From NCBI GenBank assembly GCA_039196715.1, contig JBCCUP010000007.1:1-64000 (forward strand): a stretch of DNA of 64,000 nt, written 5' to 3'. Shown one piece after another: positions 51,257-64,000 of the stretch (position 1 is the first letter of the stretch; each line of letters begins with the position of its first letter). A program made the position numbers and the translations under genes. This DNA comes from Pseudomonadota bacterium. GTDB lineage: Bacteria; Pseudomonadota; Gammaproteobacteria; CALCKW01. Under the pieces are notes generated by a model. The model searched no databases, had not been told where the DNA came from, and saw only the letters and a list, made by a program, of their open reading frames with translations.

Positions 51257-51709
51257 GAAAATTCCTTCCTGTTGAACGAGAGGGCGCTGACGTCAACCCT
51301 GTTTAGCGATTGCAGCCCCACGGCACTTGGCGTCCTGCCAACCGCCATGTGTGGGCCTGCTCTTACCCGAAATCTAGCGACCGAAACGCGGTGCGATTGA
51401 GCGTGCGAGCGGGCTGTGATCGATTCCTGAACCGGTGAACACAGCGACGTGCTGCGGTGACGGTCTCGGCGGACGCGTCAACGGATTTCCGGCACTGACA
51501 CGGCTGCTGCGGACGCTGAAACGCGCCCCGTGTCCGGGCTGGACCCGGCCTTGCAGTCGCGGGGGAATCCGCTGTGGTGCTGACGGCTCGTGACACAGAA
51601 TCGGTGCGGGTGGCAACCCCACTCGGCAAGAAAGTTGATGCTTCCCTGACAGGCCCAACACCCTTGTCGTGCCGCTTTGCAGTCGCTCTCCATCCCAACC
51701 GGCCCCGTC
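51257..51709. other. Intergenic region between cheA and the HDOD gene
   Basis: About 450 bases without a convincing gene, divergent between cheA and the HDOD gene. On the minus strand TAAA (51305-51302) followed after 16 bases by GCCCTCTC is only a poor sigma-28 match. A TTG at 51677 could extend the HDOD protein. Confidence 0.4.
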
Positions 51710-52561
51710 GTGACAGAACGCCTCGCGTTTGATGAGGTGGTTGCGCTCGCCGACCGCACCCTGCGGGTACCCGCTGTCCTCAACGCAGTGTTCAACCGGT
51801 CGGCTGCAGACGATTGCGAGCTGGACGAGCTCATCGCCTTGCTCGGCGCCGACCCGGTGTTTGCAGCGCAGGTGCTCAGGCTCGCCAACTGCCCCCTCTA
51901 CTACCGCGGCAGCACGCTGACCGCCATCGACCAGGCGGTGGTGCGTCTGGGCCGCCGCGTGATCCACGACATGGCGGCAGCGCTGATCTGTGTGAACGCA
52001 GTCGAGAAAATGCCCTCCGACACGGTGCGCATGGCGGACTTCCTTTTCCAGTCATTGCACGCCGCGCACACCGCCGCGAATCTCTCAGACCACGGCATCT
52101 GCGAGCCGTCGCCGGCTTACACGGCCGCGCTGTTTTCGGGCATCGGCACCATGGTGCTCGTGCACGCTCGCCCCGCGGACATGCGGGCGGTGCTGAACTG
52201 GAGTCTGGAAGTGGACGTGCCGTTGTCGGACACCGTCGACACCGCCTTCGGTTTCGGGCTGTACGATCTCAGCGCCGCGATTGGCCGGCTGTGGGAGCTG
52301 CCGGAGCCGGTCGTGGAGGCGATGACCCACGCGGGTGACCGCGACGGTGCCACGGGCCGTGGCGGTGTCGCCGAGTGTGTCAACGCTGCGACGCGGCTGG
52401 TTGAAGCCTGCGGGGGTGAGTCGGTTGCCGAGGACGTGATCCCGTTGATCCTGGACATCCTCGCTGGCAGCACGTTGAGCCGCATCCAGTCGGACGATGT
52501 GATCACCGAACTCGATGCCGCCAAGCAGAGCGCACACGCGGTGTTGCGGGGCTTGATGTGA
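51710..52561 (+). CDS. HDOD-domain signalling protein
   Basis: A 283-residue protein made almost entirely of an HDOD domain: LRVPAVLNAVFN, FAAQVLRLANCPLYY, STLTAIDQAVVRLGRRVIHDM and TAALFSGIGTMVLVHA are the usual conserved blocks. HDOD resembles HD phosphohydrolases but lacks catalytic residues, and serves in signalling often near chemotaxis genes. I use GTG 51710; TTG at 51677 is possible. No ribosome site is clear for either. Confidence 0.78.
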   Translation: MTERLAFDEVVALADRTLRVPAVLNAVFNRSAADDCELDELIALLGADPVFAAQVLRLANCPLYYRGSTLTAIDQAVVRLGRRVIHDMAAALICVNAVEKMPSDTVRMADFLFQSLHAAHTAANLSDHGICEPSPAYTAALFSGIGTMVLVHARPADMRAVLNWSLEVDVPLSDTVDTAFGFGLYDLSAAIGRLWELPEPVVEAMTHAGDRDGATGRGGVAECVNAATRLVEACGGESVAEDVIPLILDILAGSTLSRIQSDDVITELDAAKQSAHAVLRGLM

Positions 52562-52662
52562 GGCGGGGAGAGGGCAGCCACGCCGTGTGCCTGGCTGCGG
52601 GTGAGAGCGTTGCGGCGCCCGCACCTTGCCGGTCTGCCGACTGAGACAGGCTGCCGTGCGAT

Positions 52663-53127
52663 TCAGGTTGCGGAGATGAAGTGCACCAGGCCCGAGCCGT
52701 AACGGCCCACGTCGATGGTGTAGGTGGTGCTCTTGCTGTCACTCAACTCTGCGTAGGACGGATCGTTCGCCGGCTTGACCTCCGTCAGGCGCAGGTGGTC
52801 CGTGTCGTCGTCCATGTACAACGCCGAGAAAATGTTCATTACCTCGTAGAGGTTGGCGGTAGCAGCCTCGGTCAGCTCCTTCTCCGCGACCATGTCCTCG
52901 GCTGCGCCCGGTGGCACCATCGACAGCGCGGCACCCAGCGCAGCGGCCACCGGCAAGTCACACAGCGCGTAGGCGACTGTTTCATCCTGGCGGTTCACGA
53001 ACACCGCGAAGTGGCTGGCGCCGGCGAGGTCCAGCGACCCTTCTTCCTTGGCGCTGACGCCGTTGCCCACGATCATGTCGAGCGTTTCGTTGAGGCGCGG
53101 GGAGGCGGGCAGGTTGTAATTCGGCAT
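52663..53127 (-). CDS. CheX/CheC-like protein downstream of cheY (putative)
   Basis: A 154-residue protein encoded six bases after cheY on the same strand. The helix EAATANLYEVMNIFSALYM contains an E-x2-N pair (EVMN) as in the phosphatase motif of CheC/CheX/FliY, although the preceding Ser/Asp is missing. The early INGNGVSAKE-like region and beta-rich ends also fit that fold loosely. If correct it would dephosphorylate or bind CheY-P. This is a motif-level guess; the protein may instead be a distinct CheY-associated family. Confidence 0.5.
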   Translation of the reverse strand: MPNYNLPASPRLNETLDMIVGNGVSAKEEGSLDLAGASHFAVFVNRQDETVAYALCDLPVAAALGAALSMVPPGAAEDMVAEKELTEAATANLYEVMNIFSALYMDDDTDHLRLTEVKPANDPSYAELSDSKSTTYTIDVGRYGSGLVHFISAT

Positions 53128-53133
53128 GGTCCG

Positions 53134-53496
53134 TTATCCAAATACAGGGCGGAGCGCTTTCTCGAACGACTCCACGTTGAAAGGCTTACTGATGAGAAAC
53201 TGTGCACCCGCCTCGCGGGCAATCTCGCGCATCTCGGCAGTCGATTCGGTGGTGATGAAACCGAATTTCGTTGTCACGCCCGATTCGCGTACCTTCTTGA
53301 GAAACTCGAGGCCGTTCATCACGGGCATGTTCCAGTCCGACAAAATGAGATCGGGTTTCGCCGATTCCACCTTCTCGAAAGCAATTTGGCCGTTCTCTGC
53401 CTCCGTGATATCGAGGCCATCAAAACCGGCTTGTTTCAGAGTTCGCTTGATCAGCATCCTCATAGAGGTGCTGTCGTCAACTACAAGCACTAACAC
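53134..53496 (-). CDS. cheY: Chemotaxis response regulator CheY
   Basis: A 120-residue single receiver domain. The acidic pair is VVDDSTSMRM, the phosphorylated aspartate Asp54 (LILSDWNMPVMNG), the switch threonine in FITTES and the conserved lysine Lys104 (LISKPFN). It starts at a GTG with GGAG eight bases before. A sigma-28-like promoter lies just upstream. CheA-P is the expected donor and the flagellar motor the expected target. Confidence 0.95.
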   Translation of the reverse strand: MLVLVVDDSTSMRMLIKRTLKQAGFDGLDITEAENGQIAFEKVESAKPDLILSDWNMPVMNGLEFLKKVRESGVTTKFGFITTESTAEMREIAREAGAQFLISKPFNVESFEKALRPVFG

Positions 53497-53525
53497 GTCG
53501 AGTCTCCATGACAAACATGAGTTAC

Positions 53526-53552
53526 GTGTCGGCAAGAATCCGGCCGTCTTTA
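53526..53552 (-). promoter_or_regulatory. Sigma-28 (FliA)-type promoter for cheY
   Basis: On the minus strand TAAA (53552-53549), 15 bases, then GCCGACAC (53533-53526). This fits TAAA-N15-GCCGATAA with six of eight -10 positions and exact spacing. Predicted start lies about 20 bases before the cheY GTG. Confidence 0.6.
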
Positions 53553-53752
53553 GGGTGTGAACGTGCACCACGTCGATGCCACCAGCGTGCAGACGTCTAC
53601 GCGTCATGTGAATTCAATGGCTTGATGCAGGCGCGCTGAATCGGGACGCCAGGACAGTGAGTCGCCAGAGGCGAGATTACCTAAAGGACAGGTGCGTGGT
53701 GGACGCTACACGCCACTGTACTTGTGACATTTCAGGGAATGAGACTCTCGCC

Positions 53753-56116
53753 ATGAAGATGAATATGCGCAGGCTGTTGATGGTGTCGATGTTGGGAGCG
53801 GGATTGCTTCCGCTGCTGGCGACAACCGCCTTTATCAAGAGCGAAACACGGTCCGAAATCACACGGCAGTCGTTCAGCAGCCTCGAGGGCATGCTGGCGG
53901 GGCGCGCTGCGCACCTCAAGGCCTTGTTCGAGAAAGTGACCGACCACGCCGTGGTGCTGGCGGACGACGGCACCGTCATGAACGCAACCGCGCTGCTCAC
54001 GCAGCAGTGGGACGGTTTTGCCAACCCTGACCAGTACAGTGACGCCGAGTTTGCCGAGATGCAGACCGAGCTGCAGAAGTACTACACCGAGCAGTTCGCG
54101 GCCGAGTACGAGACGCGCAACGGCGAGGCGACACAGCTCAGCATTCCCGAAGACCCGCAGACGGTCATTGCGCAATACCAGTTCATTGCCAACAACCCGA
54201 ACCCGCTCGGCGAAAAGCACCTGATGGGCAAACCGAACATCAGCGGCTACTTTGCGAACTCGCATGCCTTCATCCACGGCAAGTTGGCGGACTTTCTCGA
54301 CCGCTTCGGCTACTACGATATTTTCATCGTCGAGCCCGAGAACGGCCGGGTGGTTTACTCGGTTTACAAGGAGCTCGACTACGCAACCAAGCTCTTCAAC
54401 GGGCCCTACCGCGACACCGGACTCGCCGAGGCGGCGCGTCGCGCATTGACCTTGCAACAGGGTGAGGTGGCCTGGACCGACTTCGGCACCTATTACCCGT
54501 CCTACGACGCGCCCGCCATGTTTGTCGGCTCCCCGATTTACAACCCCGCCAAGAAGTTGATCGGTGCGCTGGTCTTTCAGATGCCGGTCGAGCCGATCAA
54601 CGCGATCCTCGCCGCACCGACCGGTCTCGGCGAAGGTGGCCGGATCCTCGCGGTGGGCCCGGACAACCTGATGCGTTCCCAGGACCGCCTGGTCGAGGAC
54701 AACACCATCATTGCGAGCAAGTTGAAGTCCGACGGCGTCGACCTTGCGATCGACGGCAACGAGGGTTCGTTCATCGAAGAGGTCGACGGCGAATCGGCGC
54801 TGCTGGCTTACATGCCGGCCTCGGTGCCGCAGTTGGATTGGGCGCTGCTGGCAAAGATGCCGTATGCGGAGGCGTTTGCCGTCATGGACCGGTTGCTCTA
54901 CGAAACCGTCGCGGCCATGGTACTTGCTGCCCTGTTCGTTGGTTTCTGGGCCTTCATGATCGGCCGCGTGATCTACCAACGCCTCGGTGGCGATCCAGTG
55001 GAGATCCTGAGCTTTGCCCAGGCGCTCAGCGCCGGGGACCTGCGCTCGCGGCCGCAGGACCAGGACCGTATCGGGGCCTATTCCGAGCTCGTCGCGATGC
55101 GCGAGAAGATGAGCGACATCATCAGCGACGCCAAGTCGATCACGGTTGACGTCAACCAGGGCATGGGCAGCTTGCGCGAAGGCAACCGCGGGCTCTCGTC
55201 CCGCACCGAACAGCAGGCTGCAAACCTCGAGCAGACTGCAGCCAGTACCGAGGAAATCACCAGCGCAGTGCGGCAGAACGCCGAGAACGCCAAGGCGGCG
55301 AACGAGTTGGCGATGTCGACGCGCGAGCGTGCCAGCGCGGGTGGCAAGATCGCCGAACGTGCGGTCGGTGCCATGCACGAGATCAGCAAGTCGAGCGAGC
55401 AGATCGCCGCGATCATCGGCGTGATCGACGAGATCGCCTTCCAGACCAACCTGCTCGCGCTCAACGCGGCCGTCGAGGCGGCCCGTGCGGGCGAGCAGGG
55501 CCGCGGCTTCGCGGTGGTCGCGAGCGAGGTGCGCCAACTCGCGGGCCGCAGTGCCTCGGCCGCACGCGAGATCAAGGACCTGATCGAGAGCAGCGTCGCG
55601 AAAGTCAAGGACGGCACCGACCTCGTTGAAACCTCGGGCAAGGAATTGACCGACATCGTCGACCTCGTTGCCGAGCTCACCAGCGTCATGGGACAGATCA
55701 CGCAGGCCAGTGAAGAACAGGCGCTCGGCATCGATCAGATCAACGACGCGCTGATCCACATGGACTCCAGTACCCAGCAGAACGCGGCGCTGGTCGAACA
55801 GGCCGCCGTGACCGCGGAATCCATGAACGGCAAGGCCGGCGAGCTCAAGGAGACGGTGGATTTCTTCAAGGTTGACCAGCGTCACAACGTGATTCGGGCC
55901 AAAGCCAACGCCCGCAGCTTTGCGGGTAGCTCGGGCTCGAAGGTGGTCGGAGCGGGCAGCGTCCCGTTGGCCGTGAGCGGCGGCGTCGAATCCAGCGAAG
56001 CCAAGCCGGTGGCGGCCGTGCCTGCCAAGTTGCCGGCGCCCGCGACGGCAAAGCCGCGGGGCGGGGACGACGACCTGGGCGACGCCGCCGAGGATGCGGT
56101 CTGGGAGCAGTTCTAG
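53753..56116 (+). CDS. Methyl-accepting chemotaxis protein
   Basis: A 787-residue chemoreceptor. A first transmembrane helix (about 7-27), a large periplasmic Cache-like sensing domain (about 30-385), a second helix (about 385-412), HAMP, then the coiled-coil signalling domain with the hairpin tip [20 protein letters not shown] and [20 protein letters not shown]. The end is a flexible Ala/Pro/Lys linker and the terminal five residues VWEQF, similar to CheR/CheB-docking pentapeptides. The ATG at 53753 directly precedes the first helix. Ligand unknown. A strong terminator follows. Confidence 0.92.
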
Positions 56117-56175: not shown

Positions 56176-56871
56176 TCAGACGCCGGCGATCGAGAGCAGC
56201 GAGTCTCGTGCTGAGCTGATGTGGTCGCGCATCCGACGTGTGGCGGTATCGGGGTCGCGCTTGCGAATCGCGTTGACGATCGCTCGGTGCTGGATGTTGT
56301 AGGTGCGGATCTGTTCGGGGTTCAGGGTCAGGGTCAACACCTGGGACCAGCCCTGTTGGGTGCGCGCCTCGGAGAGAAAGCGCGTCATCCACGAGAACAA
56401 GCGGTTACCCGCGATCTCGGCGAGTGCGAGGTGGAAAGCGCCGTCGACGCGACCGAAGGCCGTGGGGTCGCGCTCGAGTTGCTCCATCGCGCTGAGCATG
56501 GTGTCCAGGCGCTGCAGGTCCTCGTCGTTCGCGTGCAGCACCGCGAGGCGGCAGATGTGCGGCTCCATGGCGATGCGTGCCTCGACCATCTCCATCGGGC
56601 GCAGCGTGGAGATCAGCTCCATGGAGTCCTGGTTCTTGCGAAACACCACGTAGGTGCCGCTGCCTTGGCGCCGTTCGACGTAACCGGCCGTTTCGAGGTC
56701 GCGCAGTCCCTCGCGCAGGGTGCCGCGCGCCACACCGAACTGGTCGGACAGCGAGCGCTCTGCCGGCAGGCGCTCACCGACAGCGAATTCGCCGGCGTCG
56801 ATACGGTCGCGCAGGGCGAGATAGACGTCGGTCTTGGTCGAGATGGTTTTGCGGCTCGCGCTGGTGTCCAT
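56176..56871 (-). CDS. FadR-subfamily GntR regulator
   Basis: A 231-residue regulator. The winged helix has LRDRIDAGEFAVGERLPAER, GVARGTLREGLRDLETAGYV and RQGSGTYV. The C-terminal FCD domain has DGAFHLALAEIAGN and QHRAIVNAIRKRDPDTATRRM with metal-ligand-type histidines. It is divergent from the glutamine synthetase-like gene with 235 bases between the start codons and probably controls that operon. The -10 TATAGT (56904-56899, minus) lies about 30 bases before its ATG. Confidence 0.9.
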   Translation of the reverse strand: MDTSASRKTISTKTDVYLALRDRIDAGEFAVGERLPAERSLSDQFGVARGTLREGLRDLETAGYVERRQGSGTYVVFRKNQDSMELISTLRPMEMVEARIAMEPHICRLAVLHANDEDLQRLDTMLSAMEQLERDPTAFGRVDGAFHLALAEIAGNRLFSWMTRFLSEARTQQGWSQVLTLTLNPEQIRTYNIQHRAIVNAIRKRDPDTATRRMRDHISSARDSLLSIAGV

Positions 56872-56909
56872 GGTCGTGGCCCGTCGGCGTGTCGGCGCAC
56901 TATAGCCCA

Positions 56910-56992
56910 AAACTGTACCAAACAAGAGAAACTGGTTGCGATTGGACTATCTGGTTATTTACTCTCCGGTCGGAGCCTTGCACCATAGTGCA
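56910..56992. promoter_or_regulatory. Divergent GntR/GS-like operon control region
   Basis: AACTGTACCAAAC around 56911-56923 overlaps the regulator's promoter. TTGCGA (56936-56941) and TTTACT (56958-56963) may form a forward promoter. A perfect inverted repeat TGCAC-CATA-GTGCA (56979-56992) follows, NtrC-like in its arms but with too short a spacer. Confidence 0.4.
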
Positions 56993-57106
56993 GGCTGCGA
57001 GACCGGCATTCCCAAGGCGGTCAGTGCGGTGCGGTTCGGCCCACTCCCCCGTTGATAGCGTGTTCTGCCGGCGAGTCTTTTTCGATTTCCACGCAGGAGA
57101 GTCTAC

Positions 57107-58585
57107 ATGGCGACTGATTTGGAAGGCTTTGTCTCGGCAGATGGCCGCGACGAATTGGTTCGTGAGGTCCGGGCGAAGATCGATGCCCTGGGCATCGAGT
57201 ACCTGTATCTGCAGTTTGTTTCCGTCACCGGGCGCATTTGCGGCAAGGGCATTCCGGCGGACCACTGGGAGTCAGTGGCCCAGAAAGGTTTCCAATTGGT
57301 CTACGGTGCAACCGTCAACCTGTTCACCAACCGAGGCGGCGACTACCTCGGCTACGGCCCCGAAGCCGCCGAGCTCGTCGGCATCCCCGAACCCGAGACC
57401 TTCTGTCAGCTGCCCTGGGACAAGCGCGTCGCGCGACTCTACTGCACGCTGTTCCGCAACCGTGAGGAGAAGGAGAACCCGGGCGGTTTCCTGACGTCCG
57501 ACTGCCGCGGCAACCTGCGTCGTATCCACGACCAGTTCCAGGCGGACCACAACGGCCTGGCGCTGCGCTGCGGCACCGAGCCCGAGATGATGTGGCTCAA
57601 AAAGGGCGAGGACGGCAAGCCGAACGGTGGCTTCTCGAACCCGTTCTGCTACCACATCGATCAGTTCGAGAGCCTGCGCCCGGTCTACATGAAGGTCATG
57701 GAGTACGCGCGCTTCATGGGCCTCGACATGATCCAGGGCGACCACGAGGACGCACCCGGCCAGCTCGAGCTCAACTGGCAGTTCGACGACGTGCTGCGCA
57801 ACGCCGACCGGCTGACCACCTACCGACAGATCTGTGCCCAGGTGGCGCGCGAGTTCAACCTGATCGCGTGTTTCATGACCAAGCCCTTCATGGGTGTCTC
57901 GGCGTCGGGCTGTCACCACAACATCTCGCTCTGGTTCGGCGGCGAGGACCGACTGCACAAGACCGGCAACGACCCGGACAACCTGCCGGGCATGGCCAAC
58001 AACTACCTGTACCGGCACGGTGGCGACAACACGTTCATGCCGGACACCGATGACCCGCAGATGCCGGGCAAGCTCGGGCTGCAGGCCATCGGCGGTATCG
58101 TGGCCCACCTCGGCGCGTTGACGTCGATCGGTTCGTCCACGGTCAACTCCTACCGGCGTCTCTGGGACACCGGCTTCTGGGCGCCGATCTTCGCCGACTG
58201 GGGTTTTCAGAACCGCACCACCGGCTTGCGTGTATCGGCACCGGGTCGCTTCGAGTACCGGTCGGTCGATTCGATGGTCAACCCGTACCTCATGGGCGCA
58301 GGCATCCTCAAGGCGTGCGATGACGGGCTTGTCAATCAACTCGACCCGGGTCAGCCTGAAGAGCGCAACATCTACGAGGCGATGGAAGCCGGCAAGGACG
58401 TCAAGAAGCTGCCGATGAGCCTCGGCGATGCGCTTCAGGAGCTGCGCAACGACCCGGTGATTCAGTCGGCGATGCCGGGTGAAATGTTCCGTTTGTACGA
58501 CGAGTACAAGCAGGACGAGTGGGAGCGCTTCATGCACACCGTGACCGATTGGGACCAGGAAACCTACATGGATTGCCTGCCTTGA
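57107..58585 (+). CDS. Glutamine synthetase-family ligase (GmaS/GlnT-like)
   Basis: A 492-residue ATP-dependent ligase of the glutamine synthetase superfamily. Active-site blocks are GTEPEMMW (metal glutamate), GDHEDAPGQLELNW, SGCHHNISLW (ATP/metal histidine) and RFEYRSVDSMVNPYL. It is somewhat longer than gamma-glutamylmethylamide synthetase (GmaS). Because it precedes three genes that look like split glutamate synthase (MgsABC/GlxBCD), the likely reaction is glutamate plus an amine (for example methylamine) to a gamma-glutamyl amide, or plain glutamine formation. ATG follows CAGGAGAG. The next gene starts 120 bases downstream. Confidence 0.85.
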   Translation: MATDLEGFVSADGRDELVREVRAKIDALGIEYLYLQFVSVTGRICGKGIPADHWESVAQKGFQLVYGATVNLFTNRGGDYLGYGPEAAELVGIPEPETFCQLPWDKRVARLYCTLFRNREEKENPGGFLTSDCRGNLRRIHDQFQADHNGLALRCGTEPEMMWLKKGEDGKPNGGFSNPFCYHIDQFESLRPVYMKVMEYARFMGLDMIQGDHEDAPGQLELNWQFDDVLRNADRLTTYRQICAQVAREFNLIACFMTKPFMGVSASGCHHNISLWFGGEDRLHKTGNDPDNLPGMANNYLYRHGGDNTFMPDTDDPQMPGKLGLQAIGGIVAHLGALTSIGSSTVNSYRRLWDTGFWAPIFADWGFQNRTTGLRVSAPGRFEYRSVDSMVNPYLMGAGILKACDDGLVNQLDPGQPEERNIYEAMEAGKDVKKLPMSLGDALQELRNDPVIQSAMPGEMFRLYDEYKQDEWERFMHTVTDWDQETYMDCLP

Positions 58586-58705
58586 TCCGCCGGGCCGCCG
58601 GGTTCGGCGGCCCCCCGAATGCAGCCAACAGACGCCACCCGCGGCGTGGGTGGCACACGTGCGGCTTGTCTGGACCGACCGGCCGCGCGCCAACGAGGAA
58701 AGAGT

Positions 58706-59641
58706 ATGTGTGGGATTGCTGGCCTCATCCACCGAGGCAAAAGCTCCAACGTCGGTGGGGAGATGACCTCCATGTTGCAGGCGTTGAAGCACCGCGGACC
58801 GGACTCGACCGGCTTTGCGGTGTACGGGGAATCGACCCCGGGCGACTACGTGATGCGGTTCAAGGTGGCCGAGGCCGAAGACATGGCGTCGGGCTACGAG
58901 ATCAGCGGCCTGATCGCCGACCGCATCGCGCAGGTCGAAGGGCGCTTGGCCGAGCACGGTGCGAGCATCAAGTCGCGCGAGACCGCCACGCCCTACGCGA
59001 TGCGCTATGTCATTTCCCACTCCGGTGACACCGAGGCGCTGGCGCGCTACATCGAGGACGTCGACGGCGCGGAGATCCTGTCGCTCGGCAACTCGCTCGA
59101 GCTGATCAAGGACCTCGGCGACGCGACGGTCGTCTCGGATCAATACAAGCTTGGCGATTTTGCGGGTACCCACAGCATCGGGCACACCCGCATGGCGACC
59201 GAATCGGACGTCGACATCCGTTCGGCACACCCGTACTGGGCGTTTCCGTACAACGACGTCTCGGTGGTGCACAACGGGCAGATCACCAACTACTGGCTCA
59301 AGCGCCGTGAGATGGAGCGCAAGGGCCACCGGTTCATGTCCAACTGCGACAGCGAACTGCTCGCGGTCTACACGGCGGACAACCTGGCCAACGGTGTCAG
59401 CCTGGAAGACAGCCTGCGCACGTCGATCGAGGAAATCGACGGGGTGTTCACCTACCTCGTGGCGACCTCGGATGCGCTCGGCATGGCCAAGGACACCATG
59501 GCGGCCAAGCCGCTGGTGCTGTACGAGTCAGACGACATGATCGCGATGGCGTCCGAGGAGGTGGCAATCCGCGCCATTCTGCCTCAGGAAATCGACACCT
59601 ACGACCCCTACGACGAGGAGGTGCGGGTATGGCAGGCATGA
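58706..59641 (+). CDS. Class II glutamine amidotransferase (MgsA/GlxB-like)
   Basis: A 311-residue Ntn-type glutamine amidotransferase. It begins MCGIAGLIHRGK, so Cys2 becomes the catalytic N-terminal nucleophile after methionine removal. HRGPDSTGFAVYG, GHTRMATESDVDIR, HNGQITNYW and SNCDSELLAVY are the binding-pocket motifs. It corresponds to the amidotransferase domain of glutamate synthase, here as a separate subunit, and should release ammonia for the FMN subunit. It overlaps the next gene by 13 bases. Confidence 0.9.
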   Translation: MCGIAGLIHRGKSSNVGGEMTSMLQALKHRGPDSTGFAVYGESTPGDYVMRFKVAEAEDMASGYEISGLIADRIAQVEGRLAEHGASIKSRETATPYAMRYVISHSGDTEALARYIEDVDGAEILSLGNSLELIKDLGDATVVSDQYKLGDFAGTHSIGHTRMATESDVDIRSAHPYWAFPYNDVSVVHNGQITNYWLKRREMERKGHRFMSNCDSELLAVYTADNLANGVSLEDSLRTSIEEIDGVFTYLVATSDALGMAKDTMAAKPLVLYESDDMIAMASEEVAIRAILPQEIDTYDPYDEEVRVWQA

Positions 59642-60498
59642 ACGAGACGGAACTGCGCGCCCTGAGCCAGGAAGAGCGCGCCGAAGCGCTGGGCATGATG
59701 TCCGAGCAACTGACCGGGCGTTCGATGCAGGCGTTTTTCGAGCCCGCGGAGGACGAGAATTTTCTCTACCCCTGGGCGCCGGTGGTCGACACGGCGAAGC
59801 GGGCCGAGATCGACGCTGACGGGCTGAGTGCAACCGAGGTCAATCTCAAGATTCGCGAGCTGATGCAGGACGGCGTCGGCACGGTCCGGATCACCAACCC
59901 ACGCGGCATGCACAGCCTCGGGGTTGGCATCCTGAGCAAGCTCAACCTCGAGTTCGAAGGCTCGCTTGGCTACTTCGCCGTCGGTTTGATCGACGGGCCG
60001 AACGTGCGGATCACGGGCCGGGTCGGCTGGTCCTGTGGCGAGAACATGATGGCCGGCACCGTGGTCATCGAGAAAAACGCCGGTTCCACCTTTGGCGCGG
60101 CCATCCGCGGCGGCGACCTCGTCTGCCGCGGCTCGGTCGGCTCGCGCACGGGCATAGATCAGAAGGGCGGCACCATCATCGTCGGTGGTGACACCGGGGC
60201 ACTCACCGGTTTCATGATGCAGCGCGGCCGCATGGTGTTCTGTGGCAACGCCGGCAAGAACCTCGGTGACTCCATGTACGACGGCACGATTTTCGTCGGC
60301 GGCACGATTCAAAGCCTCGGCGTGGACGCGGTTGAGGAGCCGCTGACGGACCTCGACAAGGCGTGGTTGACCCGCAAGTTGGGTCAGTACGATCTGTTGC
60401 CCGGCGAGGGTGTGGAGCACTTCAAGAAGATTGTCGCCGGTCGTCAGTTGTGGAACTACGACAACCTCGAACCGAGCGAAAAGAAACTCATTCTCTAG
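59629..60498 (+). CDS. GXGXG-domain glutamate synthase subunit (MgsB/GlxC-like)
   Basis: A 289-residue beta-helix (GXGXG) protein equivalent to the C-terminal structural domain of the glutamate synthase large subunit. Repeated glycine motifs include GSLGYFAVGLIDGPNVRITG, VGWSCGENMMAGTVVIEKNAG and GNAGKNLGDSMYDGTIFVGG. It has no catalytic residues and serves as a scaffold and channel. ATG 59629 has GAGGAGGTG seven bases upstream; ATG 59638 is the alternative. Confidence 0.9.
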   Translation: MAGMNETELRALSQEERAEALGMMSEQLTGRSMQAFFEPAEDENFLYPWAPVVDTAKRAEIDADGLSATEVNLKIRELMQDGVGTVRITNPRGMHSLGVGILSKLNLEFEGSLGYFAVGLIDGPNVRITGRVGWSCGENMMAGTVVIEKNAGSTFGAAIRGGDLVCRGSVGSRTGIDQKGGTIIVGGDTGALTGFMMQRGRMVFCGNAGKNLGDSMYDGTIFVGGTIQSLGVDAVEEPLTDLDKAWLTRKLGQYDLLPGEGVEHFKKIVAGRQLWNYDNLEPSEKKLIL

Positions 60499-60510
60499 GG
60501 AGAACACACT

Positions 60511-61920
60511 GTGGAATCACCCGAGTACTACGAAGATTCGGATGCGCCGGAAATCACGCGGGCGAAAGAGCGGGCGCCGAAGGCCAAGCTCGAGCGCGAT
60601 GTCAACCGCCTCGGCGAGAGCTTTGTTTTTCCGCCGCGCGTCATAGACGACATCCACATCAAGTCCGAACTGGGCCGGTACCGCATGCGCGGTTTCTCCC
60701 TGTTCAAGAAGATCCCGCACTGGGACGACCTGACTTTCCTGCCCGGCACGCTCACGCGGTTCGTGATCGAGGGCTACCGCGAGAAGTGCCTGACCAAGAC
60801 CGTGATCGGGCCGCGCGCGAAGCGCCCGCTGGAGCTCGACATCCCGATCTACATTACCGGCATGAGCTTCGGCGCGCTGAGCTTTGAAGCCAAGACCGCG
60901 CTTGCTCGCGGTGCCAGCATGGCCGGCACCGCGACCTGTTCGGGCGAGGGCGGCATGATCCCCGACGAGCGGCGTTATTCGACCAAGTGGTTCTACCAGT
61001 GCATCCAGTCGCGCTACGGCTTCAACCCGAACCACCTCGTGCTGGCCGACGGCTGCGAGTTCTTCATCGGCCAAGGGTGCAAGGTCGGTCTTGGCGGGCA
61101 CCTGATGGGGCAAAAAGTCACCGATCAGGTGGCCGAGATGCGGTCCTTGCCCGCAGGCATCGACCAGCGCTCGCCTGCGCGGCACCCCGACTGGCTCGGG
61201 CCTGACGACCTCGCGCTGAAGATCCAGGAGATCCGTGAGGCAACGGACTGGCAAATCCCGATACAGCTCAAGCTCGGTGCGGCGCGGGTCTACGACGACG
61301 TGCGCATGGCCGCCAAATGCGACCCGGATTCGATCTACATCGACGGCATGGAGGGCGGCACCGGTGCCGGCCCGCACCTCGCCACCGAAGACACGGGTGT
61401 GCCTGGCATGGCGGCGATCCGCCAGGCGCGCAAGGCGATCGACGACATCGGCAAGCGCGGTGAGATCTCGCTGGTCTACGCCGGTGGCATCCGCAACGGT
61501 GCCGACGTCGCCAAGGCGATTGCGCTCGGTGCTGACGCCATTGCCATCGGCCACTCGGCGATGATGGCCTTGAACTGCAACAAGGACATCCCCGAGGCCA
61601 ACTTCCAGGAAGAGATGGGCGTGGAGCCCGGCTACTGTTACCACTGCCATTCGGGCCGCTGCCCGGTCGGCGTGGCGACGCAGGACCCGACTCTGCGCAA
61701 GCGCCTCAACCCGGACGAGGCTGCGGAGCGGGTGTACAACTTCCTGCACACGCTCACCATCGAGGCGCAGCTGTTCGCGCGGGCGTGCGGCAAGACCAAC
61801 ATCCATTCGCTCGAGCCTGAAGACCTCGCGGCACTGACCATGGAGGCGTCGGCCATTGCGGGCGTGCCCCTGGCCGGCACCAACCACACCGTGGGTGTCG
61901 AGGACTACCACCACCTTTAA
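60511..61920 (+). CDS. FMN-binding glutamate synthase domain protein (MgsC/GlxD-like)
   Basis: A 469-residue TIM-barrel subunit with FMN and iron-sulfur features. ITGMSFGALSFEAKTALARG, IDGMEGGTGAGPHLATEDTG and YAGGIRNGADVAKAIALGAD bind FMN; a cysteine-rich stretch CYHCHSGRCPVGVATQDP near residue 375 is the 3Fe-4S-type cluster region. In Mgs this subunit forms N-methylglutamate from glutamate and methylamine. Start GTG 60511, twelve bases after the previous gene. Confidence 0.92.
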   Translation: MESPEYYEDSDAPEITRAKERAPKAKLERDVNRLGESFVFPPRVIDDIHIKSELGRYRMRGFSLFKKIPHWDDLTFLPGTLTRFVIEGYREKCLTKTVIGPRAKRPLELDIPIYITGMSFGALSFEAKTALARGASMAGTATCSGEGGMIPDERRYSTKWFYQCIQSRYGFNPNHLVLADGCEFFIGQGCKVGLGGHLMGQKVTDQVAEMRSLPAGIDQRSPARHPDWLGPDDLALKIQEIREATDWQIPIQLKLGAARVYDDVRMAAKCDPDSIYIDGMEGGTGAGPHLATEDTGVPGMAAIRQARKAIDDIGKRGEISLVYAGGIRNGADVAKAIALGADAIAIGHSAMMALNCNKDIPEANFQEEMGVEPGYCYHCHSGRCPVGVATQDPTLRKRLNPDEAAERVYNFLHTLTIEAQLFARACGKTNIHSLEPEDLAALTMEASAIAGVPLAGTNHTVGVEDYHHL

Positions 61921-61965
61921 TCGACCGGCGAGGCCCGCCCGGGCCTCGTTCTGGCGGAGACAGCA

Positions 61966-62376
61966 ATGGCTGGAACAAGTTACAAGGGCTCGGAAATCAC
62001 CGACGTCGACCAGTTCATCAAGGGCGATGGTCTCGAGAGTGCGCGCGAGCAGGAGATCGGCCAACACATCGGTTACCGGTACGATGTCAACCTCGTGCCG
62101 GACTACGACCGGCTGACACCTTTCCTCGCGAAGTACATGGAGGTCATGGGTTGGGACGACCTGAACTGGCTCGAAGACGTGCACATGGGCTACGAGGACG
62201 GCCACCCGGCGGTGTTCGACCGGAACATCAACGGCTGGGTCAGGGTGCCGGACAAGATCAATCTGCCCGACAACCAACAGGACAGAGACATGATCGCGCG
62301 TGAACTCCTGATCAAGTTCCAGATGTCCGAACGCCACCCGCTCACGCAGCTTCGTCTGGCCTACACCAAGTTTTGA
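61966..62376 (+). CDS. Unknown 136-residue protein of the GS/Mgs-like operon
   Basis: A small acidic protein of mixed helical and beta prediction with a central KYMEVMGWDDLNWLEDVHMG and WVRVPDKINLPDNQQDRDM. I do not recognise a family. It follows the FMN subunit by 45 bases, with GGAGA before the ATG, and lies only a few bases before the nitrilase gene start. It could be an extra subunit or chaperone of the synthase. No motif suggests catalysis. Confidence 0.7.
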   Translation: MAGTSYKGSEITDVDQFIKGDGLESAREQEIGQHIGYRYDVNLVPDYDRLTPFLAKYMEVMGWDDLNWLEDVHMGYEDGHPAVFDRNINGWVRVPDKINLPDNQQDRDMIARELLIKFQMSERHPLTQLRLAYTKF

Positions 62377-62384
62377 GTGTTCCC

Positions 62385-63224
62385 GTGACGCGTGTAGCGT
62401 GCTTGCAAGTCGCGCCGCAGCCGACCTTCGAGTCGGCGACCCAGGCGGCGCTGGCGCGGTTCGAAGAGGCGGTCGGCCAGGGTGCCGAGGCGCTTTTCCT
62501 GCCCGAGTACGCGGCGGGGTTCCGGGTGGATGCGGGGCGCTTCGCACCGCCGTCGGCCGAGGAGGGCACCAACCCCTACGTCGCTGCGATGCGAAGCGCA
62601 GCGCGTGAACACGGTGTGTGGGCGCACGCCGGGTCATTCGCGACGCCGGCACCGTCCGGCAAGGTCCGCAACCGCTCCGTGGTGATCGACCCGGAGGGTG
62701 AGATCGTCGCGCGGTACGACAAGGTCCACCTGTTTGATATCCAGTTGTCCGAACGCGAGGTGTACCGCGAATCGGATGTCGTCGCCGCCGGTGACGCGGC
62801 CTGCGTGGTCGACGCGGGCTGGTGCACGCTCGGGTGTTCAATCTGCTATGACGTGCGCTTTCCGGGCCTGTACGAGGCGATGGCGGTTGACGGCGCTACG
62901 GTGATGGCGATCCCGGCGGCCTTCACGCGTGCCACCGGTGCCGTGCACTGGCACGCGCTGTGTCGCGCCCGTGCGATCGAGAACGGTGCCTGGGTGATCG
63001 CAGCGTGTTCGGTCGGCGACATCGACGGGGGGGGCGGGTGCTACGGTCACTCGCTGATCATCGACCCGTGGGGAACAATCGTCGCTGATGGCGGCGACTC
63101 GCCAGGTGTGATCACCGCTGACATCGATATGGCGGCCGCGGTCGAAGCGCGAAACCGTATTCCGAGGCTCACACACGTTCGGCCGTTCCGGGTACAGCAC
63201 CACAAGACGGGGTCGGTGGTATGA
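62385..63224 (+). CDS. Nitrilase-superfamily carbon-nitrogen hydrolase (omega-amidase-like)
   Basis: A 279-residue hydrolase with the Glu-Lys-Cys triad: Glu41 in FLPEYAAGF, Lys113 in RYDKVHLFD and Cys154 in GCSICYDVRFPGLYEAM. The omega-amidase/NIT2-type spacing is good. It may hydrolyse an amide such as gamma-glutamylmethylamide, glutamine or alpha-ketoglutaramate made by its neighbours. The start is GTG 62385; TTG 62373 would overlap the previous stop. The end overlaps the next gene by four bases. Confidence 0.88.
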   Translation: MTRVACLQVAPQPTFESATQAALARFEEAVGQGAEALFLPEYAAGFRVDAGRFAPPSAEEGTNPYVAAMRSAAREHGVWAHAGSFATPAPSGKVRNRSVVIDPEGEIVARYDKVHLFDIQLSEREVYRESDVVAAGDAACVVDAGWCTLGCSICYDVRFPGLYEAMAVDGATVMAIPAAFTRATGAVHWHALCRARAIENGAWVIAACSVGDIDGGGGCYGHSLIIDPWGTIVADGGDSPGVITADIDMAAAVEARNRIPRLTHVRPFRVQHHKTGSVV

Positions 63225-63823
63225 CCCTGACGAAGGTGCACGACCGTGACCCCGCGCAGCGGGCGCCTTCTGCGCTCGGCTTCCTGCGCTGGCAGTGCCG
63301 CGTGCGCCAGATGCGCATGCGCGACCACGGCGGCAAACCGGACGACAGCATGATGCCGGTGTTGTCGGTGCGCGCGGACGACGGCTCACTCGACGCCCTG
63401 GGTCAGGTGATGACGGTGTTGAACCGCTTGCCTGAGCACTCGATGGTGCCGGAGATGCAACACATCAGCCGCAAAACCTTCGACCCCGCCAAACGCCGGG
63501 AAGATGCGCTGCGGTTGCTGTGTTCGACCTACTACCAGAAGGCCCAACAGTTTTCCGACATGGTCACAGCGAGCTTCGGGCCGGAGTCGGAGGGGGCCGT
63601 GCGCATCCAGCGTGCCCGCTTCGTCACGCTGACGTTCGACAAGTACGCGCAGCGGGTCGATCTGCGTTGCAAGGTCTGGCGACTCACGCAGCGCAACTAC
63701 TACTGGCAGGCGACCTACTGGCACAACGGGCTGTTCAACCCCGGTGCGCCCTCGGACGCCATCGTGCTCGGCTTCGAGCCGGATTGGTCGAGCAGTGTCG
63801 CGGAGCCACCGTTCCATGTTTAA
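63221..63823 (+). CDS. Unknown 200-residue protein of the same operon
   Basis: A soluble, Arg/Met-rich protein with helical first half (RWQCRVRQMRMRDHGG, DAKRREDALRLLCSTYYQKA-like) and a beta-rich C-terminal half (LTFDKYAQRVDLRCKVW, NYYWQATYWHNG). Not recognised. Its ATG overlaps the nitrilase stop (ATGA), so it is cotranslated. Perhaps a regulator or a partner of the amidase. Confidence 0.7.
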   Translation: MTLTKVHDRDPAQRAPSALGFLRWQCRVRQMRMRDHGGKPDDSMMPVLSVRADDGSLDALGQVMTVLNRLPEHSMVPEMQHISRKTFDPAKRREDALRLLCSTYYQKAQQFSDMVTASFGPESEGAVRIQRARFVTLTFDKYAQRVDLRCKVWRLTQRNYYWQATYWHNGLFNPGAPSDAIVLGFEPDWSSSVAEPPFHV

Positions 63824-63845
63824 CGTCACGTTGCGTGTGTGCCCG

Positions 63846-63896
63846 GTGTACACGCGTCGCGTACACAACCCCGGTGGGTGCACGTCCCGTGTACAC
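63846..63896. repeat. Three GTGTACAC-type elements, operator candidate
   Basis: Perfect GTGTACAC at 63846-63853 and 63889-63896, and GCGTACAC at 63859-63866, between the 200-residue gene and the secreted-protein gene. Outer copies are 43 bases apart. Confidence 0.4.
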
Positions 63897-63952
63897 GCCG
63901 GACCCGAGCGGGTTGCAAGATCAGCCCCTCAACCATCCCCGGAGGAAAGAGA

Positions 63953-64000
63953 ATGAAACTCAGACCACTGATGCTTGCCGCCGCGCTGACGGCGTCGCCC
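63953..64000 (+). CDS. Start of a secreted protein, cut by the window end
   Basis: Sixteen codons are visible: MKLRPLMLAAALTASP, a clear start of a signal peptide. The ribosome site GGAGGAAAG is strong. The product is unknown; by analogy with similar loci it may be a periplasmic amine- or amide-binding protein. Confidence 0.65.
   Translation, partial: MKLRPLMLAAALTASP

What the first reader, a model, noticed from the sequence alone, without database searches (positions are those of the whole stretch)
56176..64000. GS-like ligase plus split glutamate synthase extended by an amidase and two unknown proteins
The ligase and the three glutamate-synthase pieces resemble the N-methylglutamate pathway (gmaS, mgsABC), but no N-methylglutamate dehydrogenase genes (mgdABCD) are seen here. 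Instead a 136-residue unknown, a nitrilase-type amidase and a 200-residue unknown follow within 45 bases or less of each other, the last two overlapping. Hypothesis: a variant route that ligates an amine to glutamate and later cleaves or exchanges it, with the new proteins as subunits or sensors, controlled by the divergent FadR-type regulator.
Basis: partly seen in the sequence, partly recalled or inferred. Interest (0 to 1): 0.75.

Follow-up and report, generated by a model that had tools for sequence, protein, structure and literature searches.

The report
Candidate glutamate-linked dimethylamine breakdown operon
This operon appears to break down dimethylamine by attaching it to glutamate, and it is found almost only in trimethylamine-degrading marine bacteria that lack the one known dimethylamine enzyme, so it may fill a recognised gap in the ocean's nitrogen cycle.

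Summary
A gamma-glutamyl-amine ligase (GSx), three glutamate-synthase-type subunits (xA, xB, xC), a 136-aa protein (u136), a nitrilase-type amidase and a 200-aa protein (u200) form one operon, with a divergent GntR/FCD regulator. Just beyond the window lie a TMAO transporter, TMAO demethylase (Tdm), trimethylamine monooxygenase (Tmm) and a complete canonical gmaS-mgsABC set; mgdABC-like genes lie elsewhere. So this is a second, diverged NMG-type system, not an incomplete copy. u136 is strongly conserved and lies beside xC in all 80 named loci examined. The key result is complementarity with dimethylamine monooxygenase (Dmm): of 54 genomes with u136, 2 have DmmA; of 53 Rhodobacterales with full-length Tdm but no u136, 51 have DmmA. 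One of the two exceptions has dmmC at a contig end; the other has GSx coupled to a P450. In the window's own genus, two genomes have the module and no Dmm, and one has dmmDABC and no module. Best reading: an alternative to Dmm that handles dimethylamine through gamma-glutamyl-dimethylamide and N,N-dimethylglutamate. The chemistry is inferred. The amidase is optional. u200 is predicted to have a flavin/heme split-barrel fold; u136 has no match.

The parts
56176..56925 (-). divergent GntR/FCD-type regulator; an in-frame ATG 54 bases inside the listed ORF (MDTSASRK...) is the likelier start
   Evidence: PF00392 + PF07729; called in 54 of 66 loci with GSx and u136
57107..58585 (+). GSx: glutamine-synthetase-family ligase, 492 aa, proposed gamma-glutamyl-dimethylamide synthetase
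   Evidence: PF00120; TIGR03105 294 bits, below its 469.6 cut-off. Amine-site and catalytic residues of RhGmaS kept in 69-70 of 70 GSx; I174, G176, P182 and N237 fixed in 70 of 70 where GmaS has Y, N, N, H
58706..59641 (+). xA: class II glutamine amidotransferase subunit (MgsA-like), starts MCGIAG with the usual Cys2
   Evidence: PF13522/PF13537; 32-40% identical to the three other A subunits of the genome
59629..60498 (+). xB: GXGXG subunit (MgsB-like)
   Evidence: PF01493
60511..61920 (+). xC: FMN glutamate-synthase-type catalytic subunit (MgsC-like), in a clade of its own
   Evidence: PF01645 1e-90; x-type xC form one clade apart from the canonical MgsC
61966..62376 (+). u136: conserved 136-aa protein of unknown fold, obligate neighbour of xC
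   Evidence: no Pfam/NCBIfam/PDB match; at least 585 relatives; beside xC in 80 of 80 named loci
62373..63224 (+). nitrilase-superfamily amidase, optional; possibly a repair omega-amidase
   Evidence: PF00795; nearest NCBIfam deaminated glutathione amidase, 183 bits, below its 500 cut-off; Glu45-Lys117-Cys158 kept in 63 of 63; called in 51 of 66 loci
63221..63823 (+). u200: predicted FMN/heme-binding split-barrel protein (PNPOx / HutZ-HugZ-like fold)
   Evidence: model pLDDT 94, pTM 0.89; VIA Z 11.3 to 3db0, 10.2 to 2i02 and 2asf

Best explanation
The operon encodes an alternative route for dimethylamine (DMA), standing in for DMA monooxygenase (DmmDABC) between TMAO demethylase and the N-methylglutamate pathway. 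Proposed mechanism: GSx uses ATP to join DMA to the gamma-carboxyl of glutamate (gamma-glutamyl-dimethylamide); xA-xB-xC, working like NMG synthase, free the amine and transfer it to C2 of glutamate to give N,N-dimethylglutamate; a flavoprotein (DAO13 where present, otherwise a SoxBDAG/Mgd-type complex or u200) removes one methyl to give N-methylglutamate, which MgdABCD takes to glutamate. u136 would be a small subunit of the synthase or oxidase; the amidase a dispensable repair enzyme. Shown here: gene content, conservation, association with tmm/tdm, near-exclusion of DmmA. Inferred: the substrate and every chemical step.
For: (1) Of 80 Rhodobacterales with a Tdm hit tested, 61 have full-length Tdm: u136+ 8 (DmmA in 1), u136- 53 (DmmA in 51), Fisher p = 6e-7, not corrected for relatedness. 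(2) A separate set of 46 u136+ genomes from Gamma- and Alphaproteobacteria has DmmA in 1. (3) Both u136- exceptions have an account: G554 has dmmC at a contig end; G463 has GSx overlapping a cytochrome P450, beside tmm, tdm and mgsABC. (4) Own genus: G000 and G003 module+, DmmA-; G002 module-, with mgsABC-dmmDABC-gmaS. (5) The complementarity also holds within the closer Tdm subfamily, where both states occur. (6) The window operon runs straight into TMAO transporter and Tdm genes, with Tmm and canonical gmaS-mgsABC downstream. (7) GSx keeps the GmaS amine pocket, and RhGmaS does act on DMA, though at Km 16 mM against 27 uM for methylamine (PMC7948447), so the chemistry is possible and leaves room for a specialised enzyme. 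(8) Strain SB2 (CHAB-I-5), a lineage reported to lack dmm (PMC5520151; PMC12661815), carries the module with tmoXWV and tdm (L131).
Against: No biochemical or growth evidence. G142 and G568 have both systems. At least 12 gammaproteobacterial carriers have no Tmm at the cut-off used, so DMA would have to come from outside or from another source. In L127 a canonical gmaS stands where GSx should be. No DAO13 ortholog was found in the window's genome (best match 27%), so its demethylation step is unassigned. No paper on gamma-glutamyl-dimethylamide in metabolism was found in the library searched. The complementarity test was built after the pattern was suspected from the same genus, and relatedness inflates the p-value.
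Confidence: 0.6

Rival explanations
1. A second N-methylglutamate system for methylamine: GSx-xABC makes NMG from methylamine under other conditions (affinity, oxygen, regulation), and the link with DMA is incidental.
For: Same four-gene order and protein families as gmaS-mgsABC; the amine-site residues of GmaS are kept; in L127 a canonical gmaS stands beside the x-type synthase.
Against: The window's genome already has a complete canonical set 14-16 kb away. It would not explain why DmmA is nearly absent from carriers (2 of 54) and nearly universal in Tdm+ non-carriers (51 of 53). Fixed differences next to the active site and a deep split of xC from MgsC.
Confidence: 0.17
2. DMA is demethylated at the gamma-glutamyl stage: GSx makes gamma-glutamyl-dimethylamide, an oxidative enzyme (u200/u136, DAO13 or a P450) removes one methyl to give gamma-glutamylmethylamide, and xABC or canonical MgsABC take that on.
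For: G463 has GSx translationally coupled to a P450, lacks xABC and u136 matches in the fetched stretch and keeps canonical mgsABC nearby; u200 has a flavin/heme split-barrel fold.
Against: One genome only for the P450 version; most carriers keep a complete extra xABC, which would be redundant if the product were ordinary GMA.
Confidence: 0.13
3. The operon acts on some other amine met in the same habitat (for example ethylamine, ethanolamine or another amine from osmolyte breakdown), and the anti-correlation with Dmm reflects lineage and gene-cluster inheritance.
For: Carriers without Tmm; the glutamine-synthetase family holds ligases for several amines (established knowledge); relatedness was not corrected for in the Fisher test.
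Against: Complementarity holds in two classes, within one genus and within one Tdm subfamily; the module is often directly joined to tmm/tmoXWV/tdm (35 of 66 loci with tdm inside the stretch held).
Confidence: 0.1

Closest known systems
N-methylglutamate pathway: GmaS + MgsABC + MgdABCD (Latypova et al.; structure of RhGmaS, PMC7948447)
   Same: Ligase plus three glutamate-synthase-type subunits in the same order; catalytic and amine-site residues of GmaS kept in GSx; SoxBDAG/Mgd-type genes in the genome and beside the module in some relatives (L036/L037, L150, L159).
   Different: GSx is 29% identical to the genome's own GmaS and below the family cut-off; xC is a separate deep clade; adds u136 and u200 (and often an amidase or DAO13); coexists with a canonical set; excludes Dmm rather than depending on it.
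Dimethylamine monooxygenase DmmDABC (R. pomeroyi, PMC5520151)
   Same: Proposed place in the pathway: the step after Tdm.
   Different: No homologous part: Dmm is a haem N-demethylase with a ferredoxin reductase; the module has a ligase and FMN synthase. DmmA is absent from nearly all carriers.
TMA cluster of Ruegeria pomeroyi DSS-3, SPO1548-1588, with regulators TmoR and TmaR (PMC13390433)
   Same: tmm, tdm, tmoXWV, gmaS, mgsABC and a GntR-type regulator; the window's operon is embedded in the same kind of cluster.
   Different: That cluster uses dmmDABC for DMA; orthology of the divergent regulator here with TmoR was not established.
Deaminated glutathione amidase / omega-amidase (nitrilase superfamily)
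   Same: Best family match of the amidase; Glu-Lys-Cys triad intact.
   Different: Score far below the curated cut-off; here in an amine operon and optional.
FMN-binding split-barrel proteins (PNPOx family, Rv2074, HutZ/HugZ)
   Same: Predicted fold of u200.
   Different: 7-16% identity in the aligned rows, no family-level sequence match; cofactor unknown.

Membership tests
GmaS (gamma-glutamylmethylamide synthetase, type III GS, TIGR03105) | Score over the curated family cut-off | tested here: not met
   GSx 294.1 bits against 469.6; the genome's own gmaS scores 674.9
GmaS (gamma-glutamylmethylamide synthetase, type III GS, TIGR03105) | Amine-site and catalytic residues Lys30', Tyr147, Gln175, Asp177, Glu179, Glu186, Asn188 | tested here: met
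   Kept in 69-70 of 70 GSx
GmaS (gamma-glutamylmethylamide synthetase, type III GS, TIGR03105) | Methylamine as preferred substrate | not testable with these tools
   Needs enzyme assay
N-methylglutamate synthase MgsABC | Three separate subunits: GATase, GXGXG, FMN glutamate-synthase domain | tested here: met
N-methylglutamate synthase MgsABC | C subunit groups with canonical MgsC | tested here: not met
   x-type xC form their own clade (98/93), canonical MgsC and C29_C another (100/100); long branches and fast rows noted by the program
N-methylglutamate pathway | N-methylglutamate dehydrogenase genes mgdABCD in the genome | tested here: inconclusive
   Two SoxBDA-type sets at C97 and C31, 34-57% identical to Mgd-type neighbours of the module in other genomes; which one is Mgd and which sarcosine oxidase is not resolved, and the D/gamma subunit was not identified in G000
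Dimethylamine monooxygenase DmmDABC | DmmA subunit (NF041259) in the genome | tested here: not met
   No match in G000 or G003; present in congener G002
Dimethylamine monooxygenase DmmDABC | HODM subunit in a dmm operon | tested here: not met
   The only PF11927 protein of G000 (C135) sits with COX15/ctaB/SURF1-like genes, no DmmA or reductase beside it
Deaminated glutathione amidase (NF043013 / NF033621) | Score over the curated cut-off | tested here: not met
   183.5 against 500; 142.3 against 355
Nitrilase superfamily (PF00795) | Domain match and Glu-Lys-Cys triad | tested here: met
   170 bits against 23.2; triad in 63 of 63
FMN-binding split-barrel superfamily (u200) | Fold | tested here: met
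   Predicted model only: pLDDT 94; Z 11.3, rmsd 2.5 A over 119 residues
FMN-binding split-barrel superfamily (u200) | Binds flavin, F420 or haem | not testable with these tools
   Needs purified protein
TmoR | Orthology with SPO1553 and DMA as effector | not tested
   The SPO1553 sequence was not on hand; G574 has a separate, 30% identical GntR near tmm as well as the module's own

The most novel reading that the evidence does not exclude
A second biological route for dimethylamine, in which the secondary amine is carried on glutamate (gamma-glutamyl-dimethylamide, then N,N-dimethylglutamate) instead of being attacked by a haem monooxygenase, spread by gene transfer through marine Alpha- and Gammaproteobacteria, and supplying the DMA step reported as missing in CHAB-I-5 and other abundant lineages; u136 and u200 would be new enzyme subunits.
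Probability: 0.42. Interest if true: 0.9.

Novelty: new variant of a known kind. Interest (0 to 1): 0.78.

Why it matters
DMA is a climate-relevant marine amine, and its breakdown was described as a bottleneck because abundant taxa carry tmm, tdm and gmaS but no dmm (PMC5520151). If this module degrades DMA, part of that bottleneck is an artefact of searching for only one enzyme, and nitrogen and aerosol-precursor budgets would need revising. The prediction is sharp and testable with single gene deletions in cultured roseobacters. It would also add a ligase for a secondary amine and two uncharacterised protein families to C1 metabolism.

Tried and rejected
An incomplete NMG locus lacking mgd: rejected, since canonical genes and Mgd-type sets exist elsewhere in the genome. 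PF11927 (HODM) as a Dmm marker: dropped, because it also matches a protein near cytochrome-oxidase assembly genes; DmmA was used instead. DAO13 as a fixed part of the module: rejected; clear orthologs are in 13 genomes of the carriers searched and in none of the 24 non-carriers searched with them, and none in G000. The amidase as the central cleaving enzyme: rejected as optional. P450s in Roseovarius loci as module parts: set aside, they sit in a separate betaine-type gene run. tblastn of u136 and u200 in plasmids: no match. PDB and PHROGs sequence searches: nothing usable. Fold search with the u136 model (pLDDT 72): no match above Z 2.3, which does not show a new fold. Literature searches for gamma-glutamyl-dimethylamide or a glutamate-linked DMA route: none found in the open-licence library; subscription papers are not covered.
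Full report
What is there. The window is G000:C7:1-64000 of a 4.95 Mb, 169-contig gammaproteobacterial genome estimated 96% complete. From 57107 to 63823 seven genes run on the + strand: GSx, xA, xB, xC, u136, a nitrilase-type amidase and u200; a GntR/FCD regulator faces away from them. Gaps are 120, -13, 12, 45, -4 and -4 bases. Beyond the window the run continues with an OpuAC-type binding protein, an ATPase and a double permease (TMAO-transporter-like), then a DUF1989+GcvT protein matching TMAO demethylase, a class I amidotransferase, an ammonium transporter, Tmm (823 bits, cut-off 675), an XRE regulator, canonical mgsABC, and gmaS (675 bits, cut-off 469.6). The Tdm and TMAO-transporter names rest on family matches and on neighbourhood; the Tdm match was made with a stretch cut at the locus end and is therefore below the full-length cut-off.

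The genome is not short of the standard pathway. Besides the module it holds three more mgsC-type genes (C7:77.4 kb, C29, C79), the first with its own gmaS. SoxBDA-type sets that could be MgdABC lie at C97 and C31; which is N-methylglutamate dehydrogenase and which sarcosine oxidase I could not tell.

The unknown proteins belong to the module. u136 occurs in 18 of 369 genomes sampled from the class, with 51 residues invariant in 15 diverse members. A scan of named genomes stopped at 597 stretches, of which 585 encode relatives. In the 80 best loci u136 always lies directly after xC. Of 66 loci in which GSx and u136 were both called as ORFs, u200 was called in 61, the amidase in 51, the GntR regulator in 54, and tdm in 35; these are lower bounds, as contigs end and the ORF calling missed some genes that tblastn shows (for example u200 in L098 and L099). 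In more distant gammaproteobacteria the core is DAO13-GSx-xABC-u136, often with u200, without the amidase, and in L036/L037, L150 and L159 the module lies beside Mgd-type genes.

The link with dimethylamine. Of 312 Rhodobacterales genomes, 84 have a Tdm hit; the tool takes 80 handles at most, so 80 were tested. Sixty-one of these have full-length Tdm (over 900 bits). Eight carry u136, and one of the eight has DmmA; 53 do not carry it, and 51 of the 53 have DmmA (Fisher p = 6e-7, not corrected for relatedness). The remaining 19 have only weaker, partial Tdm-like hits, and neither u136 nor DmmA. In a further 46 genomes with u136, from Gamma- and Alphaproteobacteria, DmmA was found in one. So 2 of 54 carriers have DmmA. 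The two module-less, DmmA-less genomes are instructive: G554 has dmmC where its contig ends, so its Dmm is probably present but cut; G463 has GSx overlapping a cytochrome P450 gene, with tmm, tdm and mgsABC near by. Within the window's genus G000 and G003 have the module and no DmmA, while G002 has mgsABC-dmmDABC-gmaS and no module. The only HODM-family protein of G000 lies among cytochrome-oxidase assembly genes and is not a dmm operon.

Limits of that link. The pattern was first suspected in this genus and then tested, and the carriers within Rhodobacterales are few (8). G142 and G568 have both systems. At least 12 gammaproteobacterial carriers have no Tmm at the cut-off used; they would need DMA from another source. 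The comparison shows that the module and Dmm replace each other; it does not show the reaction.

Why a glutamate-linked reaction. GSx keeps the residues that line the methylamine site of RhGmaS and its catalytic Asp177 and Glu186, but differs at fixed neighbouring positions: Ile174, Gly176, Pro182 and Asn237 in 70 of 70, Ala231 in 69 of 70. RhGmaS itself accepts DMA with Km 16 mM against 27 uM for methylamine (PMC7948447), so the family can do the reaction but is not tuned for it. The xC proteins form a clade apart from canonical MgsC (several long branches, so depth should not be over-read). A second ligase-synthase set beside a canonical one suggests a second substrate, and the exclusion of Dmm suggests which. 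By analogy with NMG synthase the product would be N,N-dimethylglutamate, which needs one oxidative demethylation to enter the Mgd step.

The accessory proteins. u200 was modelled at pLDDT 94 and resembles FMN/F420/haem split-barrel proteins (Z 11.3, rmsd 2.5 over 119 residues to 3db0); it may be redox-active, but no cofactor was tested. u136 was modelled at 72 and matched nothing. DAO13, a FAD oxidoreductase often just upstream of GSx, was found as a clear ortholog in 13 carriers and in none of the 24 non-carriers searched with them, but not in G000, so the demethylating enzyme of this genome is open. The amidase has an intact triad in 63 of 63 but is dispensable; a repair role is a guess.

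Relation to the literature. DMA degradation in the sea was called a bottleneck because tmm, tdm and gmaS are common and dmm rare, with SAR11, abundant gammaproteobacteria and the CHAB-I-5 roseobacters named as lacking it (PMC5520151). Strain SB2, a CHAB-I-5 member (PMC12661815), carries this module joined to tmoXWV and tdm (L131). I did not test SAR11. No paper describing the module was found in the library searched; that library leaves out most subscription journals.

Verdict. The finding is real and more interesting than first stated: a conserved, widespread, diverged NMG-type module that stands in for Dmm. I hold the DMA role at about 0.7 and the full route as stated at 0.6 or below; the chemistry needs the bench.

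Noticed in passing
G000:C29:49356-50386 and C79:11214-12362 (L007, L008): Two further mgsABC-type sets; C79's lies with branched-chain-amino-acid-type ABC transporter genes and a GntR regulator, and no ligase gene was seen beside either.
   Followed up: no
G000:C135:1035-1805 (L143:999-1880): A HODM/DUF3445 protein among COX15, ctaB and SURF1-like genes, so PF11927 alone overcalls dimethylamine monooxygenase.
   Followed up: partly
L192:1381-4058 (G463): GSx overlaps a cytochrome P450 gene, with no xABC or u136 match in the fetched stretch; possibly a different way to demethylate the ligated amine.
   Followed up: partly
L067, L073, L076 downstream of u200: In Roseovarius the module is followed by a run with a GntR regulator, a DapA-like protein, aldehyde dehydrogenase, an MttB-like methyltransferase, an enolase-superfamily protein, a P450 and SDRs, resembling betaine demethylation; names are from sequence reading, not family scans.
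   Followed up: no
L127 (MarineAlpha9_Bin6): A canonical gmaS stands where GSx usually is, before x-type xABC-u136-amidase-u200, with Mgd-type genes near by.
   Followed up: partly
L125:11857-12144 and 10 other loci: A DUF1330 protein lies between u200 and tmm in some roseobacters; it may be the gene of unknown function reported between tmoR and tmm.
   Followed up: no
L059: Record labelled Oceanobacillus (Bacillota) but gene content and trees place it among the proteobacterial loci; probably a mislabelled or contaminated record.
   Followed up: no
window 51677-56116: Upstream genes look like chemotaxis and signalling: an HDOD-like protein, a CheX/CheC-like protein, a response regulator and a methyl-accepting chemotaxis protein; read from sequence, not scanned.
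   Followed up: no
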